A stretch of DNA of 64,000 nucleotides from assembly GCA_023137315.1 (NCBI GenBank), contig JAGLPP010000070.1, positions 1 through 64,000 on the forward strand, read 5' to 3'. Origin of the DNA: Bacteriovoracaceae bacterium (lineage in GTDB: Bacteria; Bdellovibrionota; Bacteriovoracia; Bacteriovoracales; Bacteriovoracaceae). The notes beneath the pieces were generated by a model. That model was not told the DNA's origin and did no database searches. It saw only the letters and a program-made list of their open reading frames with translations. The stretch's first letter is position 1. Each line of letters starts with the position of its first letter. A program made the translations under genes and the position numbers. Below, in pieces: positions 12,761-20,311 of the stretch.

Positions 12761-14209
12761 ATGAAAACATTATTCATTCTCATTATTTTTCTTATCTGTG
12801 GCACCACACTTGCGAAATCACCCAAATATGTTTTTTTCTTCATTGGCGACGGAATGGGGGTTAGTCACAGCGAGATTGCTGAATATTTTGTCAAAAAAAC
12901 GCAAACAAAAGATAATTCCTCTTTTGCAATCAACCACTTTCCAGTCGTGTCCATCGTAAAAACTTATGCAACGAATGTGGATATAACAGATTCAGGAGCT
13001 GCTGGAACAGCTTTGGCAACTGGACACAGAACAAATTACAAACATCTTTCCGTCACTCCAAATGGTGAAAGAGTGAAGACAATCGTCGAAGAGGCAATAA
13101 AAAAAGGATGGTCCACTGGAATCATCACAAGCACAAAAATTACAGATGCCACTCCGGCCGCATATATGGGACATCATGCAAACAGAAAAAAAGAAAATAA
13201 TCTTGCAGAACAAATTACAGAAAGTGGTGTTAACTTTATTGCGGGTGGAGGTCTTGGACATTTCATTCCACGAAGTATGAATGGATCACTGAGAGAGGAT
13301 GAAAAAAATCTTTTGGAACTCATGAGCATAAAAGGTTACACGCTTTTTACCGGTATGCGCGGTTGGGAGGATTTTAAGACACTTTCTTTCCTGGAAAAAC
13401 AAAATATTTTTGCTCTTTTCAGTTACAAGAAACTTCCTTTCGTAATCAACCAGAACGAATCAGGTCCATCTCTTGAAACCATTGTTGACAAGGCCATAAC
13501 ATGCCTTTCAAAACACAAAAAACCTTTTTTCATCATGGTTGAAGGTGCAAAAATTGATACGGCCGCACACAAAAACGATTTACCGACAACCATACATGAA
13601 ACAATTGCCTTCAATAAGGCCATCCAGAGGGCCGTTGAATTCTATCAGGAACATAAAAATGAGACATTAATCATCGTGACCACAGACCACGAAACCGGTG
13701 GGCTCGGTCTCGGACATATTAAAGATGAGAAAAATTTCAACATCTCCCCCATTCTCAAGGCCAAAACAACCATGGTGGACAGCGAACACAACGAACACAT
13801 GGAATACAAGGGCAATAAAAAAGAGTGGTTCGAAAAAATCGACAAGTATCTTGGACTTCTTCCATTCTCCAAAACTGAAATGAAAATCATTAAAAATGCA
13901 ATGTCTTATGACGATGTATATCGAACAAAATCACCTCTGCTGAAAACATGGTTCCAATTTACCGGCGCCCTGAATGCATCTTCCAGGGAACTTGGAGCGG
14001 ATGCCCCGTATCCAAGAACTTCCATCGCCATCAATCGAATTCTTTCTGCAAGGGCCAATGTCTACTGGACAACCTACGGCCACACTGCCTCCCCTGTCCC
14101 GCTTTATGCTATCGGAGTTGGTGCCCGTCTATTCAGTGGAGTGATGGCCAATTATGAAGTTGGCAGAAAGCTGGCCAAAATCATGGGCCTTGATCTATCC
14201 CAATTGTAA
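12761..14209 (+). CDS. Exported alkaline phosphatase
   Basis: The protein has 482 residues with a signal peptide (MKTLFILIIFLICGTTLA). The alkaline phosphatase core is clear: FFFIGDGMGVSHSE (first metal-binding Asp), DSGAAGTALATG with the nucleophile Ser, MVEGAKIDTAAH, TTDHETGG (metal-binding Asp-His), and YGHTASPVPLYAIG near the end. The order and spacing are those of the PhoA superfamily. It would hydrolyse phosphomonoesters in the periplasm or outside the cell. Gene order nuclease, alkaline phosphatase, then a phosphate transporter supports phosphate scavenging. I see no clear Pho box. Confidence in the family is high. Confidence 0.92.
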   Translation: MKTLFILIIFLICGTTLAKSPKYVFFFIGDGMGVSHSEIAEYFVKKTQTKDNSSFAINHFPVVSIVKTYATNVDITDSGAAGTALATGHRTNYKHLSVTPNGERVKTIVEEAIKKGWSTGIITSTKITDATPAAYMGHHANRKKENNLAEQITESGVNFIAGGGLGHFIPRSMNGSLREDEKNLLELMSIKGYTLFTGMRGWEDFKTLSFLEKQNIFALFSYKKLPFVINQNESGPSLETIVDKAITCLSKHKKPFFIMVEGAKIDTAAHKNDLPTTIHETIAFNKAIQRAVEFYQEHKNETLIIVTTDHETGGLGLGHIKDEKNFNISPILKAKTTMVDSEHNEHMEYKGNKKEWFEKIDKYLGLLPFSKTEMKIIKNAMSYDDVYRTKSPLLKTWFQFTGALNASSRELGADAPYPRTSIAINRILSARANVYWTTYGHTASPVPLYAIGVGARLFSGVMANYEVGRKLAKIMGLDLSQL

Positions 14210-14299
14210 AAATATAAAAGGGAATGTTTCATTCGTATCACGCACAGGGCACACTCAATGCAAAACTTCCATAGTGTATGCAATATGATGATTTTACCG

Positions 14300-15355
14300 T
14301 TAGAGAAAAACCTTATTCATAAAAACATTTTGAACAAAAAACAACATAACAAAAGAAAGTATTGCGGCAATAATTGGTGTGGCCACCCAGCCAATACTTA
14401 TTCTTCCTAAAATCTGATAGTTTACATTTCTTGCTTTTTTTATAATACCTATTCCAATAACAGCTCCAATGACAGCTTGAGAGCTGGAAACCGGAACAAG
14501 AGGGATCGGTGGCAGGTTAAGACTAATTAATATTTGCTGTAGATCGCTTGAAGCGAAAATAAAAAGCACCATCGAGCTGGATAATACAACTATTAGTGCT
14601 GTTATTGGAGATAATTTGAAAATATCCTTACCCACAGTGGTCATTACTTTTTTCGAATAAGTAAACACACCTGCTGAAATAGCAAGACTGCCTATAAGAA
14701 AAAGAATTTGAGTGTTTGAAAATATAACATGACCATTATGTGTAATATTTTTAAATGGAGATGATGCTATGAAAACTCCCATGACGTTGGCAATATTATT
14801 TGCGCCCAAACTGTAAGCACCAAAAGCTCCTGTAATAATTAGTGCCCTGCGGGTATACAAATCCAACCTAAAAAGATGCATTTTTGTTTTTTGCAAAATG
14901 AACTTGACACAAATAAACAAAATAATTGAAAAAAGCATTGATAAAAACGGACAAATAATCCATGTGCCCGCAATTTTCATTAAAACTTGTGGGTTTGTAT
15001 GGGTTCCTGAAAAGAAGTTCCAACCTATAATAGCTCCGACAATTGCCTGCGATGTGGATACAGGGATTTTTGCCTTGGTCATAAAAAAAACAGACCATGC
15101 AGCGGAAAATGCAACTGTGAATGAACCTGCCAACGTATTAACTTCTCCCAATTTTCCAAGCGTATGACTCCCACCTGCTCCACCCAGAACAGAACCAATT
15201 ATTACAAAAACACTACAAATCCATGCAGCAGTCGTAAATTTTATCATTTTAGAACTGACTGCTGTCCCAAATACATTTGCGGCATCGTTTGCGCCTAGAG
15301 ACCATCCCAGAAACAGCCCGCTTGATAAAAAGAAAATTATTGTTACCATTGGCAT
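14300..15355 (-). CDS. Inorganic phosphate transporter, PiT family
   Basis: The protein has 351 residues and about ten hydrophobic segments. Both inverted PiT signatures are present: GANDAANVFGTAVSS near the N-terminus and GANNIANVMGVF in the second half, each followed by a Ser-Gln-A-(I/V)-x-G motif (STSQAIVGAIIG, SSSQAVIGAVIG). It carries out low-affinity phosphate import driven by protons or sodium across the inner membrane. It is the second gene of a minus-strand operon behind the DUF47 gene, with 10 bases between them, which is the common arrangement for Pit transporters. Confidence 0.92.
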   Translation of the reverse strand: MPMVTIIFFLSSGLFLGWSLGANDAANVFGTAVSSKMIKFTTAAWICSVFVIIGSVLGGAGGSHTLGKLGEVNTLAGSFTVAFSAAWSVFFMTKAKIPVSTSQAIVGAIIGWNFFSGTHTNPQVLMKIAGTWIICPFLSMLFSIILFICVKFILQKTKMHLFRLDLYTRRALIITGAFGAYSLGANNIANVMGVFIASSPFKNITHNGHVIFSNTQILFLIGSLAISAGVFTYSKKVMTTVGKDIFKLSPITALIVVLSSSMVLFIFASSDLQQILISLNLPPIPLVPVSSSQAVIGAVIGIGIIKKARNVNYQILGRISIGWVATPIIAAILSFVMLFFVQNVFMNKVFL

Positions 15356-15365
15356 AATTAATCTT

Positions 15366-16010
15366 TTAAATTGAACGTTTGATTATTGAAATTGCCAACC
15401 TTTGGCATACGTCTTCGGCAAGATCACTCAAATCCGCCAATTCATCAATAAAATACCTTAAATGCATTTTCTTGCTGAAATCAGTAATTTCCACACTTGA
15501 AAATATGGCCCTTTTTAAACGTTCAACAACCTTGTCCACTTCTCCTTCAAAAAAATAAACCCGATTGATAAAACCGTTACATGTTTTTATATCAACAAAA
15601 AATGTCATCACTGCTTTCGCCAGTTCATCAACCGCATTTTCAGAATATTCTGCTAATTTCAAAAAATCTTCTTTTAAAGATTCCGGGATATAAGGTCTTT
15701 CAATATCAATAATTAAGATTAGTCTTTGAGCTTCATCAGCGACATCATCCATGGTTTCGAGAATACCTAAAACATCTCCCCGGGAATCAGGAATTAACAT
15801 ATCAGTATAGAGCTTATGCTCAATCTGTGTTCTAAGTTTATCAGCTTTTCCTTCCAAATTCTTGATTTTAGTGACTCGTTCGGAAAACAGGTCGAGTGAT
15901 CCAGACAAATATTCTTTCATTGCTTCACGAAAAATCATTCCACATTTTTGAATAGTAAGAACATAGTTTTCGATTTGTTTTTCCAGAATCTTCGCTCTAT
16001 TTAATACCAT
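15366..16010 (-). CDS. DUF47/PhoU-like Pit accessory protein
   Basis: The protein has 214 residues, is all-helical in appearance and soluble. It matches the DUF47 (TIGR00153-type) PhoU-like family in size and in the pattern NLEGKADKLRTQIEHKLY, then LETMDDVADEAQRLIL and a C-terminal DELADLSDLAEDVCQRLAI. Members are encoded next to Pit phosphate transporters and are thought to regulate them, as here. It is first in the operon, so transcription of pit should start upstream of 16010. The family call is good; the biochemical role of the family is not well known. Confidence 0.88.
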   Translation of the reverse strand: MVLNRAKILEKQIENYVLTIQKCGMIFREAMKEYLSGSLDLFSERVTKIKNLEGKADKLRTQIEHKLYTDMLIPDSRGDVLGILETMDDVADEAQRLILIIDIERPYIPESLKEDFLKLAEYSENAVDELAKAVMTFFVDIKTCNGFINRVYFFEGEVDKVVERLKRAIFSSVEITDFSKKMHLRYFIDELADLSDLAEDVCQRLAISIIKRSI

Positions 16011-16077
16011 CGCGTGTTATCCTTTAAAAATGATTATATCTAATAAAAAGTATACATCTAAAATGCCCACTTTGAAT

Positions 16078-16091
16078 ATTGAATATTCAAT
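16078..16091. repeat. Perfect 14-bp palindrome in the DUF47/PhnA divergent region
   Basis: ATTGAATATTCAAT is a perfect inverted repeat about 70 bases upstream of the DUF47-pit operon and 138 bases before the PhnA-like gene. The location fits an operator for a dimeric regulator, but AT-rich palindromes arise by chance and no second copy was noticed in this window. Confidence 0.3.
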
Positions 16092-16228
16092 AACAAACTA
16101 TTCACAAGCAACAAAATGATTCAAATAGTAATGTTAGTATCGTTGCCACCTGGAGTATTTAGTGGATTCAGAATTTTAATTGTCAAAAGAAATGATTAGA
16201 ACTATTGTGGCAATGGGAGAAGATTATT

Positions 16229-16585
16229 ATGACTGATGAAAGTTCCCATTGCCCTAAATGTGATTCACCATACCCTTATCAAGATGGCCAACTATGGATC
16301 TGTCCCATATGTGCCCATGAATGGGGCCTTCACGAAAAATCAAGCGTTCAAGAGAAGGAGGATCAAACGATTCTAGATGCCAATGGAAGCGAACTACAGG
16401 ATGGAGATACGGTAACTATCATCAAAGATCTCAAGGTAAAAGGATCTTCTTCATCCATTAAGGTTGGAACAAAAGTAAAAAATATTCGCCTGATTCCAGA
16501 CAGTCTGGATGGTCACAACATAAGTTGCAAGATAGTTGGTTTCGGAGCGATGAATCTTAAATCAGAGTTTGTAAAAAAAGTTTAA
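16229..16585 (+). CDS. PhnA/YjdM-like zinc-ribbon protein
   Basis: The protein has 118 residues from ATG 16229, chosen because GGGAGAAG lies upstream; ATG 16205 has no such site. The N-terminus is a zinc ribbon ([26 protein letters not shown], two CxxC knuckles). The rest ([26 protein letters not shown]) is the typical PhnA domain. Despite the historic name, the family is not shown to be part of phosphonate breakdown, and its role is unclear. It neighbours the phosphate transporter operon in divergent orientation. Confidence 0.9.
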
Positions 16586-16695: not shown

Positions 16696-18135
16696 TTACT
16701 CTTTTATTCTTTTACTCTTGGCCAACAGATGTTTAAAAACAGCCTCTGCGATTTTTTTGGCGTATTTTCCAACAAAAACCGGATATGTATCTTCAAGCGC
16801 ATTCCATTTTCCCGTGATTTCCCCGGCGCCGGCTTCTATGACCAATCCCGGTAATATGGTAATTGAATCTGGAATTTCTTCCGTCGTTATTTTTGAAAAA
16901 CCACCACGTTTAATGGATTCCTTTATAGCGAGTGCTGCCGCTTTTGACTTTACGTTCCCGAAATACTTTATATTAAAAACCGGTATCCTGGAATTTTTGT
17001 ACACAACCTTTAAATAAAAGGTCGAATTAAACTGTTTCAATATACTTGTTCTCTTTTTATCATCAATATTTTCAGCTATGTATTTCAATGAACGCATTGT
17101 TTTTATTCCATATTTTTCCAAAAGAAATGTCTCCACTTCAGTATACAGCTTCCATGCCAGAAATCTTTCCGACATTGGCCACGTACCCGGGATTTCCGTA
17201 TCCAAAAAAATGTTGGAGAAATGAATGGCATCCTTTCTTTTCTCGTCAAGCATCCTGGAAATCTTTATTCTGTTCATTTGATATTCAACAAGATGAATAT
17301 TTGAAAGCTCAATCTCTGTCGGAAGAACTTTTACTATTCTTCCATTTTCTCTTTTGAAAAATATCCCGCCACGATTTTGAATTTGTTTTTTTATACTTTC
17401 CAATTGCTTGAGACTCATACTTTCCAGCAATCTTTCATCAATAATTTTTGTCTTTGCCAAACTGTTAAAATCAATCTCTTTAAAAGAAATATCCCGGCGT
17501 TTTGGCATAGGCGGTGGTATGTCATTCTCCTGTTTTATTGTCGTATAAACATCTTTAATAAAATAATTTTTCCACACGGCCCTGAATCTGAATGTCGTGT
17601 ACATAATACCAAGCAAAAATGCCATGATGAAAAACATGGGATAATTATTCCTGCGTTTTTTTCTTCTGAGGTATCTTCTCCCCTGCCTGTGTATCGGTTC
17701 TTTTTTTTCTTCAGTCCTTTTCATTTTTCCGAGAAAAATCAATTCTTCAGAACAAATCTTGTACAATCTACTGTAATACTGTTCAATCATTCCCAACGAA
17801 GCATCCATCCATGTCACATTACAAAGATAATATTCCAAAGCCGTGGTTGGTTTTGTTTCATCTATGCGAAAAGAAATAATCTTCTTCTTAAAATGAACAG
17901 CACGGTCTATCTCCCTCAACACCTGATCAGATTCATTGGCCTTGGATGAAAACACCACAATAAAAATATCCGCGGCCCTTATTGCCTCAACAATTGCCTT
18001 TGCAAAGTTTTCCCCAATAGCTATATCTCTTGGGGCCATCCAGCAGCCAATATTATTTGCCTCAAAATAATTACAAAGATTTTTGACCTTTTGTGCATCG
18101 CTGGAGGAGTGACTCAGAAAAACATTATAACCCAT
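16696..18135 (-). CDS. TIR-domain protein with membrane anchor (putative effector of the cyclase operon)
   Basis: The protein has 479 residues. Residues 1-130 are a TIR domain: strand A VFLSHSSSDA, then GCWMAPRDI, the D strand ADIFIVVFSS, and the helix SDQVLREIDRAV, whose Glu75 is in the place of the catalytic Glu of NAD-cleaving TIRs. A basic stretch (RRYLRRKKRR, 153-162) precedes one transmembrane helix at about 165-184, so the TIR domain faces the cytoplasm. The C-terminal 295 residues are predicted outside the cytoplasm and match nothing I know. It starts 4 bases after the cyclase gene stop, with AGGAGA inside that gene's end as ribosome site. Operon and domains suggest a nucleotide-triggered effector, as in Pycsar, but no cyclic-nucleotide-binding domain is recognised. 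Confidence 0.85.
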   Translation of the reverse strand: MGYNVFLSHSSSDAQKVKNLCNYFEANNIGCWMAPRDIAIGENFAKAIVEAIRAADIFIVVFSSKANESDQVLREIDRAVHFKKKIISFRIDETKPTTALEYYLCNVTWMDASLGMIEQYYSRLYKICSEELIFLGKMKRTEEKKEPIHRQGRRYLRRKKRRNNYPMFFIMAFLLGIMYTTFRFRAVWKNYFIKDVYTTIKQENDIPPPMPKRRDISFKEIDFNSLAKTKIIDERLLESMSLKQLESIKKQIQNRGGIFFKRENGRIVKVLPTEIELSNIHLVEYQMNRIKISRMLDEKRKDAIHFSNIFLDTEIPGTWPMSERFLAWKLYTEVETFLLEKYGIKTMRSLKYIAENIDDKKRTSILKQFNSTFYLKVVYKNSRIPVFNIKYFGNVKSKAAALAIKESIKRGGFSKITTEEIPDSITILPGLVIEAGAGEITGKWNALEDTYPVFVGKYAKKIAEAVFKHLLAKSKRIKE

Positions 18136-18139
18136 CCGT

Positions 18140-20311
18140 TTAATTTCTCCTTACATGATAAGTAGGAAATATTCCGAATTCCTTTGGCATGGATATTTGT
18201 CCAACATAGTTACAAATAAAATCACCAATATGATATGCCTCTGCCAAGGAAGCAAATTCAAGACTGCAAAACACCTGTCCAGGAGGTGTTATGGATTCCA
18301 TCCTGGCAACACGGCATATATTTGTCCCACTATAGACAATATCTCTGGTTATTGGACTTTTATAATTATAGACCATTCCTGCATGAAGAGCGGTTCTTAA
18401 TTTTATCTGTTTTGAAATTCCCTCACTGGCCCAGTCAATATTTGCAATCCTCTCCACAAATTCCAAAGCAAAAAGACCTGCATGTTCAATCCTTGGAAAA
18501 ACAAGAAAAAGAGCATCTCCCCACGAGTTTCTAGCAGCCACCTTGAACCTTTCATCTTTTAATATCTCTCCAACCAAACCCAGGAGCTTTTCTCCAAAAA
18601 TAATCATTTCATCGTCAGACAACCTGCTGTAATTAACCGTGTCAGCAAAAAGAAGGCCCATCACTTCACTTTTATATTTTTTTGTGGAAGTGGTTTCAGG
18701 AATATCTGTTTTTGTTCTCAAAACCTGTTTTGTTTTCAAGGTCACGTTTTTTCTCAGGATATCGGCTAAATCTATAATTTCCACCTGATGTCCCCTATTT
18801 TGCCAGTTATCCACAACCGTTGCCGTTCCCCCTTCTTTCCTTTCCGAATTTTTGTCACAGACTGCCATTGGAATGAGTTCCGTTTGCATATGGCGCGCGT
18901 GAATCAGGGCAAAACCGTAGAGTACATGATTGGCGTAATCGTAGGGAATATCCATAAACTCCGAAGTGTGTTTGGTTATCTCGAACGTCTTCACTGAAGA
19001 GCGTAAAATTTTTCCAAAACGTGCCTCCCAATTGGATTGCTTCAAATATCCCACGCTGCTTTCAATGAATTTTTGTATCTCACATGGAAGAACCACATTA
19101 ACCTTGGCATTTCTTTGAATAACCGTTTCAAGAAAAAGAATGTCTGCACCACAGGCTGCAGATGAATATGTAATACAATTTCCAATTTCATCCATTTTTT
19201 TTTCAATCTCACTCTTGACGGCCTTTTCAATTTCCTGTGGAAAACGAATTCTATCATCTTCAAGCCTGTCAACCATATGCCCGGTAAAAACAACAACTTT
19301 TGGAATGTTGAACAACAGGTCCAATTCCTCCTTTATCTTATCCGGTATTGAAAAAGTCGAAAACAACAGACGAAGATTCTTTCTTGTGGAAATCAAATCA
19401 CCCAATCTTTGCTCACCCAATTCACAGGCCTTTTTGTACCATTTCAAGGCCTCTGAAAAATCCTGTAAAATAATGGACGCTTCCCCAATTGTTGCGTATG
19501 ACCAATATGAATCCCCCTCTTGTCCACACAACTCATCCAAAACTTTTCTTTTAATTTCGCCTGCTGCATCCTTGGCCGATGCCATATCCCCTGATATGGC
19601 CTGCGTGGTTGCGAGATTGATTCCACTCCAGATACTGCCTGAATTTTCATAAGCCTCACGATAATACCTTATGGCCAATTCCATTTCCCGTATTTTTTCT
19701 TTTTCATCCTTTGCAAGAATTGACATTTCCTTGTGTGTACTTGCCAAAAGTCCAAGTGTCTCATCATTTTTTTCCCCCTCATTGTAAAGCTCCAACAAAA
19801 TATTGTTTGCCCTTTTACCGAGTCCAATCCTGATCAGAGACAGGGCATGAAGTTGCCTTAGCTTTACATCATCTGGAAAATGCGTGAGTCCCTCCTGTGT
19901 AACGTCGTATGCCAACAGTGGCTCGGCATAACTTAAAACCTTCTTGGCAAATATCTGATATAGATTGGATTTTAACGACCATGTTCCACTATCGTGCCTG
20001 CTCCAAACAGATCGCAATTCATCCAGGGAAACTGAACTCTTTGAGAGATACGAAAGGAGAAAATCATCGGCACAGACACCATCTCTGTCCAATTTTTCGC
20101 TGGACAGGGAAACATCATATCCAATTTCAAGAACATTTTTTAAAATATTTCTTGTGGTATTTCGACAATAATTCTTTTCATATTCCGAAAGTTTTTCAAA
20201 TTCCACGATCTGTGGATTCTGATCACTCCAATTATCATGAGCAGTTTTTGCCAAAAATTCAATTAGTTCTGAATATTCCCCGTTTGGAAAATCTTCACCT
20301 GTCTTTTTCAT
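18140..20311 (-). CDS. Multidomain class III nucleotide cyclase (RyR-like, TPR, SLOG-like, cyclase)
   Basis: The protein has 723 residues. The N-terminus (about 10-75) resembles a RyR-type helical domain (AHDNWSDQNPQIVEFEKLSE). Residues 130-330 are TPR-like helical repeats (ALKWYKKACELGEQRLGDL). Residues 340-525 look like a SLOG/Rossmann domain (VVVFTGHMVDR, then SSAACGADILFLE). The C-terminal 180 residues are a class III cyclase: metal Asp residues in LLFADTVNYSRLS and NSWGDALFLVF, and SGTNICRVARMESITPPGQVF. The usual transition-state Asn is Cys, while the Arg four residues later is kept; the Lys used for adenine choice is Asn. The product nucleotide is therefore unclear. It is the first gene of a two-gene operon with the TIR protein. 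Confidence 0.82.
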   Translation of the reverse strand: MKKTGEDFPNGEYSELIEFLAKTAHDNWSDQNPQIVEFEKLSEYEKNYCRNTTRNILKNVLEIGYDVSLSSEKLDRDGVCADDFLLSYLSKSSVSLDELRSVWSRHDSGTWSLKSNLYQIFAKKVLSYAEPLLAYDVTQEGLTHFPDDVKLRQLHALSLIRIGLGKRANNILLELYNEGEKNDETLGLLASTHKEMSILAKDEKEKIREMELAIRYYREAYENSGSIWSGINLATTQAISGDMASAKDAAGEIKRKVLDELCGQEGDSYWSYATIGEASIILQDFSEALKWYKKACELGEQRLGDLISTRKNLRLLFSTFSIPDKIKEELDLLFNIPKVVVFTGHMVDRLEDDRIRFPQEIEKAVKSEIEKKMDEIGNCITYSSAACGADILFLETVIQRNAKVNVVLPCEIQKFIESSVGYLKQSNWEARFGKILRSSVKTFEITKHTSEFMDIPYDYANHVLYGFALIHARHMQTELIPMAVCDKNSERKEGGTATVVDNWQNRGHQVEIIDLADILRKNVTLKTKQVLRTKTDIPETTSTKKYKSEVMGLLFADTVNYSRLSDDEMIIFGEKLLGLVGEILKDERFKVAARNSWGDALFLVFPRIEHAGLFALEFVERIANIDWASEGISKQIKLRTALHAGMVYNYKSPITRDIVYSGTNICRVARMESITPPGQVFCSLEFASLAEAYHIGDFICNYVGQISMPKEFGIFPTYHVRRN

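What the first reader, a model, noticed from the sequence alone, without database searches (positions are those of the whole stretch)
16696..20311. Two-gene operon: multidomain nucleotide cyclase plus TIR-membrane protein, a Pycsar-like candidate system
A class III cyclase with RyR-like, TPR and SLOG-like sensor domains is encoded 4 bases before a TIR protein with a transmembrane anchor. Pycsar defence pairs a class III-type pyrimidine cyclase with a TIR or TM effector (established knowledge). Here the sensor part is much larger and the effector combines TIR and TM in one chain. No cyclic-nucleotide-binding domain is visible, and the 295-residue C-terminus after the membrane helix is unknown. 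Whether it is antiphage, stress or developmental signalling is inference.
Basis: partly seen in the sequence, partly recalled or inferred. Interest (0 to 1): 0.85.

Follow-up and report, generated by a model that had tools for sequence, protein, structure and literature searches.

The report
TIR receptor gene paired with cyclase
A bacterium related to predatory Bdellovibrio-like species carries a tightly coupled two-gene signalling unit, a membrane-anchored TIR protein and a large enzyme predicted to make a cyclic nucleotide; the pairing is real and recurs across distant bacteria, but it does not meet the definition of the Pycsar anti-phage system and more likely works as a receptor-to-second-messenger relay.

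Summary
Two minus-strand genes 4 bp apart encode a RyR-remnant/TPR-S/Rossmann/class III cyclase protein (723 aa, 18140-20311) and a TIR-TM protein (479 aa, 16696-18135). The pairing is not chance: it is kept in 8 of 9 cyclase-carrying genomes of the host family, and the TIR protein's C-terminal domain occurs in the order only at those 8 loci, apart from one marginal match. Elsewhere TIR genes sit beside this cyclase family in several phyla, with at least 5 gains or losses on the tree. The cyclase keeps both metal aspartates (76/76 relatives) and the catalytic Arg (75/76), but never the adenylate-cyclase Lys.

Pycsar membership is not supported: the TIR protein has no cyclic-nucleotide-binding domain, the cyclase matches no Pycsar model, and no defence island is seen. 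In three Desulfobulbaceae-type loci the cyclase adjoins a cyclic-nucleotide-binding Ser/Thr kinase, a dedicated reader that is not the TIR. The unknown C-terminus is predicted periplasmic and models as a peptidoglycan-amidase fold whose zinc histidines appear lost. Best reading: the TIR is a membrane receptor/NADase on the input side, sensed by TPR-S, with the cyclase as output. Direction, substrate and biological role are untested.

The parts
18140..20311 (-). cyclase-protein gene, 723 aa: RyR remnant - TPR-S/TPR - Rossmann-type domain - class III nucleotide cyclase
   Evidence: ORF; Pfam; AF2 model pLDDT 87.4
20108..20239 (-). RyR domain remnant (aa 25-68; core deleted relative to relatives)
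   Evidence: Pfam RyR 3.4e-6, profile 47-90 only; comparison
19607..19885 (-). TPR-S (tetratricopeptide repeats-sensor) domain (aa 143-235); TPR-type helices continue to about aa 316
   Evidence: Pfam PF20308 3.4e-17; only TPR-S in the genome
18746..19306 (-).
   Evidence: secondary structure of model; conserved GHMID...RFP...SAACGxDILFLE motif; no profile match
18143..18670 (-). class III nucleotide cyclase domain (aa 548-723)
   Evidence: PDB profile hits; Foldseek TMt about 0.7-0.8 to class III cyclases; D557 and D599 76/76, R670 75/76 in the family
18515..18517 (-). metal-binding Asp 599 (NSWGD motif); base-specifying position D-4 is Asn 595
18147..18152 (-). Shine-Dalgarno AAGGAG for the TIR gene, inside the end of the cyclase gene
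   Evidence: sequence
16696..18135 (-). TIR-TM protein gene, 479 aa
   Evidence: ORF; Pfam TIR_2 7e-19
17800..18123 (-). TIR domain (aa 5-112) with F6 and E75, the Phe/Glu pair of the TIR NADase site, invariant in the family
   Evidence: site definition from PMC11312562
17584..17640 (-). single transmembrane helix (aa 166-184), positive-inside, placing TIR in the cytoplasm
   Evidence: a TM segment follows the TIR in all 13 partners examined
16702..17211 (-). predicted periplasmic domain (about aa 309-478), amidase-3-like fold with zinc histidines apparently lost
   Evidence: AF2 model pLDDT 67; Foldseek PDB E 2e-6, top 19 hits all N-acetylmuramoyl-L-alanine amidases; weak profile alignment in the expected register

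Best explanation
A two-gene membrane signalling relay. The TIR protein is a single-pass receptor-like protein: an extracytoplasmic domain (here amidase-fold-like, probably catalytically dead) senses an envelope or peptidoglycan state, and its cytoplasmic TIR domain is activated and makes an NAD-derived nucleotide. The TPR-S (and possibly the Rossmann-type) domain of the neighbouring protein senses that nucleotide, or the TIR assembly itself, and switches on the class III cyclase domain. The cyclic mononucleotide made is then read by CNBD proteins: a co-encoded CNBD-Ser/Thr kinase in Desulfobulbaceae-type operons, unlinked CNBD proteins in this genome. Shown: the genes, domains, conserved catalytic residues, topology signal, recurrent linkage with TIR, and linkage with CNBD-kinase and HD domains elsewhere. 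Inferred: enzymatic activities, the base used, the direction TIR to cyclase, and the biological trigger.
For: Pair kept in 8/9 family genomes, and the ectodomain is found in 129 genomes of the order only at those 8 loci plus one marginal hit. TIR beside the cyclase in several phyla, at least 5 independent changes of state on the tree. TIR F6/E75 and cyclase D557/D599/R670 conserved. A TM segment follows the TIR in every partner examined, while the extracytoplasmic part varies: amidase-like, TPR, multi-TM BioY-like, or a short tail; that fits an input module better than a shared effector. In L100, L103 and L091 the cyclase adjoins a CNBD-Ser/Thr kinase and, in L103 and L091, a PP2C phosphatase. 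HD-domain genes adjoin or are fused in L100, L103, L077 and L102. Nine CNBD matches in this genome. TPR-S was predicted by its describers to read NAD-derived signals (Burroughs and Aravind 2020, recalled; paper not held).
Against: No direct evidence for signal direction. No CNBD-kinase adjoins the window pair. The Asn of the cyclase active site is Cys here and Ser in most relatives, which could lower activity, although active cyclases lacking it are known (PMC4886424, PMC3770947). The amidase-fold call rests on a pLDDT 67 model from 7 sequences, with only weak sequence support. 50 of 77 surveyed cyclases have no TIR nearby, though some contigs are cut short.
Confidence: 0.42

Rival explanations
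1. Pycsar-like order: the sensor part of the cyclase detects infection, the cyclase makes a cyclic (possibly pyrimidine) nucleotide, and this activates the TIR-TM protein, which depletes NAD or damages the membrane and aborts infection.
For: Cyclase plus TIR in one operon, TIR downstream in the window lineage. TIR catalytic residues kept. Base-specifying Lys absent in all 76 relatives, so not a canonical adenylate cyclase. Patchy distribution in the family, 9 of 95 genomes, with different flanking genes in different genera.
Against: No CNBD in the TIR protein and the only unknown domain is predicted periplasmic. No Pycsar model match. Specificity residues match no published PycC set. Related operons carry a separate CNBD reader. 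No defence genes nearby. No viral-contig relatives; only partial, distant plasmid matches.
Confidence: 0.2
2. TIR as a non-enzymatic adaptor: TIR domains and TPR repeats assemble by protein contact and bring cyclase domains together to dimerise and fire, with no NAD-derived signal.
For: Class III cyclases need dimers and TPRs are protein-binding scaffolds (established knowledge). Tight gene coupling favours a complex.
Against: The NADase-site Phe/Glu pair is invariant in the family, which an adaptor would not need.
Confidence: 0.2
3. Envelope or developmental regulator unrelated to phages, for example sensing peptidoglycan turnover during growth or predation, with cyclic-nucleotide output to CNBD regulators; mechanism as in the best explanation but not immunity (this rival concerns role, so it overlaps with the mechanism readings).
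For: Single chromosomal copy among household genes such as alkaline phosphatase, phosphate transport and coaE; periplasmic amidase-like domain.
Against: Patchy distribution and repeated turnover of the TIR partner resemble conflict systems; no phenotype data.
Confidence: 0.3
4. The cyclase domain is catalytically dead and only binds nucleotides; the pair is a pseudo-enzyme sensor for the TIR.
For: Transition-state Asn replaced by Cys/Ser in most members.
Against: Metal Asp 76/76 and Arg 75/76 retained; CNBD-kinase and HD neighbours in relatives.
Confidence: 0.08

Closest known systems
Pycsar (PycC + PycTIR/PycTM)
   Same: class III-fold cyclase and a TIR protein in a two-gene operon
   Different: PycTIR is CNBD-TIR (PMC11224242); here TIR-TM-periplasmic domain without CNBD; cyclase has a large TPR-S/Rossmann sensor half; closer by sequence and fold to canonical cyclases; different base-pocket residues
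Thoeris (ThsB TIR + ThsA)
   Same: TIR protein next to a protein predicted to sense NAD-derived nucleotides; ThsB_TIR Pfam hit 1.5e-5
   Different: output domain is a class III cyclase, not SIR2 or another ThsA effector; TIR is membrane-anchored; SLOG identity of the Rossmann domain not confirmed
TPR-S / TIR conflict systems of Burroughs and Aravind 2020 (JB 202:e00365-20; recalled, paper not held)
   Same: TPR-S domain next to TIR genes in an operon; nucleotide-signal logic
   Different: I could not check whether this exact TPR-S-cyclase plus TIR-TM pairing is listed there; the periplasmic amidase-like domain and the CNBD-kinase link were found here
Animal Toll-like and peptidoglycan-recognition receptors (analogy only)
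   Same: single-pass membrane protein with cytoplasmic TIR; amidase-type fold used as a receptor domain in PGRPs
   Different: no homology claimed for the ectodomain; amidase-3-type, not the amidase-2 (PGRP) fold; bacterial inner membrane

Membership tests
Pycsar | cyclase of the PycC family | tested here: not met
   no PADLOC or NCBIfam Pycsar match; family profile finds canonical adenylate/guanylate cyclases in the PDB, no PycC entry listed
Pycsar | effector carries a cyclic-nucleotide-binding domain | tested here: not met
   no cNMP_binding hit in the TIR protein at E up to 1; C-terminal domain models as amidase fold
Pycsar | known pyrimidine-specifying residues | tested here: inconclusive
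   positions here F555, N595, W597 do not equal the published sets, but PycC clades themselves vary
Pycsar | makes cUMP or cCMP and protects from phage | not testable with these tools
   needs biochemistry and phage challenge
Class III nucleotide cyclase | fold plus two metal aspartates | tested here: met
Class III nucleotide cyclase | transition-state Asn and Arg | tested here: inconclusive
   Arg kept 75/76; Asn is Cys here, Ser/Asn/Cys/Val in family; Rv1900c lacks Asn and XC_0250 lacks both, each active
TIR NADase | TIR domain with catalytic Glu and facing aromatic residue | tested here: met
   F6 and E75 invariant, site definition; activity untested
TPR-S proteins | Pfam TPR-S above gathering score | tested here: met
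   63.3 bits against 27.6
Thoeris | SLOG or other ThsA-type partner | tested here: not met
   no Thoeris effector match for the partner; SLOG not confirmed
Amidase-3 enzymes | zinc-binding His-Glu-His site | tested here: not met
   DPGHGG and SIHxN histidines have no counterpart in the aligned regions; by-eye reading of a weak alignment

The most novel reading that the evidence does not exclude
A bacterial transmembrane receptor built like a Toll-type receptor (periplasmic pseudo-amidase ectodomain, one TM helix, cytoplasmic TIR NADase) that senses peptidoglycan state and relays it through an NAD-derived nucleotide to a TPR-S-controlled cyclase, so that two second messengers are chained in series. 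Exchangeable ectodomains in other phyla would make it a modular receptor family.
Probability: 0.2. Interest if true: 0.85.

Novelty: new variant of a known kind. Interest (0 to 1): 0.6.

Why it matters
If the relay is right, it links two signalling chemistries, TIR/NAD and cyclic mononucleotides, in series, and gives bacterial TIR domains a membrane-receptor role like that of animal Toll receptors. The cyclase family is widespread: 415 matching stretches in one genome collection, from Cyanobacteria to Planctomycetota. The CNBD-kinase operons give a directly testable reader for the cyclase product.

Tried and rejected
Viral contigs with the TIR protein and with the cyclase alignment: no relatives. 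Plasmids: nine records, only partial, distant matches. PADLOC scan of 48 window proteins for a defence island: only single matches per family, read as generic helicase and radical-SAM similarity. SLOG identity by Pfam, PDB profile and comparison with E. coli Smf: none significant. A LpoB/TolB/CsgG-like guess for the C-terminal domain was dropped after the fold search pointed to amidases. A profile-profile test of the amidase idea gave score 18.2 against a maximum of 17.0 in 30 column shuffles, suggestive only (global mode gave nothing). Literature for this exact pair: nothing found; the 2020 paper that named TPR-S is not held. Promoter and terminator scans of the region are no better than shuffles.

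Full report
What is there. Two minus-strand genes lie 4 bp apart: a 723-aa protein (18140-20311) and, downstream, a 479-aa protein (16696-18135). A Shine-Dalgarno for the second gene sits inside the end of the first. The genes on either side point the other way, so this is an isolated two-gene unit. Pfam finds TPR-S, MAP3K-TRAF-binding TPRs and a partial RyR in the first, and TIR in the second; neither has a cyclic-nucleotide-binding domain. The RyR core present in relatives is missing here.

The cyclase domain. It escapes Pfam in the window protein, but relatives L100 and L044 hit Guanylate_cyc. A 76-member family profile finds class III cyclases in the PDB, and the full-length model (pLDDT 87) matches them with target TM-scores of about 0.7-0.8. 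Both metal aspartates are invariant (76/76) and the catalytic Arg is kept in 75/76. The base-specifying Lys of adenylate cyclases is never present (Asn 61, Glu 9, Arg 5, Gln 1), and the transition-state Asn is Cys here and mostly Ser elsewhere. Active cyclases lacking that Asn are known. The family is therefore probably active, but its base cannot be read from sequence. The published PycC residue sets are not matched.

Is the pair more than chance? In the host family, 9 of 95 genomes carry the cyclase, and 8 of those 9 have the TIR gene directly beside it; the ninth (L023) is a very divergent, long-branch member. The C-terminal domain of the TIR protein, searched as a profile in 129 genomes of the order, is found at those 8 loci and otherwise only in one marginal match. 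The genome has only two TIR genes and one TPR-S gene. Across the 80 best genome-collection loci of 415 matching stretches, spread over many phyla, 16 of 77 tree rows have a same-strand TIR within about 300 bp and 11 more have one nearby; 50 have none, some on short contigs. The tree needs 8 changes of the TIR-operon state, at least 5 forced by well-supported branches. This sample is biased to close relatives, the tree is a quick one, and a few rows have long branches.

What the neighbours say about direction. In L100 and L103 (Desulfobulbaceae-type) the operon runs TIR-TM, HD domain (separate or fused), TPR-S cyclase, then a CNBD-Ser/Thr kinase; L103 adds a PP2C phosphatase, and L091 shows cyclase, CNBD-kinase, PP2C at a contig edge. 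The L103 cyclase is split into two ORFs in that record. HD genes also adjoin the cyclase in L077 and L102. A cyclic-nucleotide reader is thus present that is not the TIR. A TM segment follows the TIR in all 13 partners examined, but the part beyond differs: amidase-like, TPR, multi-TM, or almost nothing. I read this as an exchangeable input module. The inference would be weakened if a TIR partner with a cytoplasmic CNBD were found.

The unknown C-terminus. The positive charge before the TM helix (+8) predicts a periplasmic C-terminus. The model (pLDDT 67, 7 sequences) matches N-acetylmuramoyl-L-alanine amidases (E 2e-6 at best, probability 1.0, target TM about 0.5-0.65; the top 19 hits are all of this group). 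A profile alignment lands in the expected register and slightly above 30 shuffles, while Pfam and PDB sequence searches find nothing. Both zinc histidines seem absent. I hold the fold at moderate confidence and the loss of catalysis at somewhat less.

Defence or not. No defence island in 64 kb. No viral-contig relatives. Plasmid matches are partial and distant. The patchy distribution and partner turnover are compatible with a conflict role but do not show one. Some relatives lie beside nSTAND-type NTPase genes (L039, L064; read from their start sequences), which keeps the question open.

Verdict. A real, conserved TIR-TM/TPR-S-cyclase pair, a new variant within the known world of TIR and cyclic-nucleotide signalling, not a Pycsar member by the features tested. 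The most likely mechanism is receptor TIR to sensor-cyclase relay (0.42), with Pycsar-like order (0.2) and an adaptor model (0.2) as main rivals on mechanism. Confidences of the rivals overlap because one of them concerns role rather than mechanism.

Noticed in passing
L002 1474-3018 (own genome contig C153): A second TIR-TM protein (514 aa) in the same genome, without a cyclase neighbour in the short contig piece seen, and with a divergent BB-loop region.
   Followed up: partly
L100 1968-6785, L103 4664-10365, L091 5-4208: TIR-TM / HD / TPR-S-cyclase / CNBD-Ser-Thr-kinase / PP2C operons in Desulfobulbaceae-type bacteria: an apparently undescribed complete signalling cassette.
   Followed up: partly
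L033 8260-9459: TIR fused to a BioY-like multi-TM region (Pfam BioY 4e-12) next to the cyclase.
   Followed up: no
L094, L095, L096, L104: In Verrucomicrobia the cyclase follows a CobW_C-type gene and, in three of them, faces a small FGVSGHRDL-type gene that may be a SLOG-like protein.
   Followed up: no
L048 2123-4657, L054: DUF4062 (TIR-like) gene directly downstream of the cyclase in Verrucomicrobia; in L048 it is a DUF4062-TPR fusion.
   Followed up: no
window 12761-16585: Alkaline phosphatase, PiT-type phosphate transporter with its accessory protein, and a PhnA-like zinc-ribbon gene: a phosphate cluster beside the pair, judged by eye.
   Followed up: no
L020 11243-12232 and L089 (338 aa, upstream of cyclase): Deoxyhypusine-synthase-like genes near the cyclase in two distant loci; possibly coincidence, read by eye only.
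   Followed up: no
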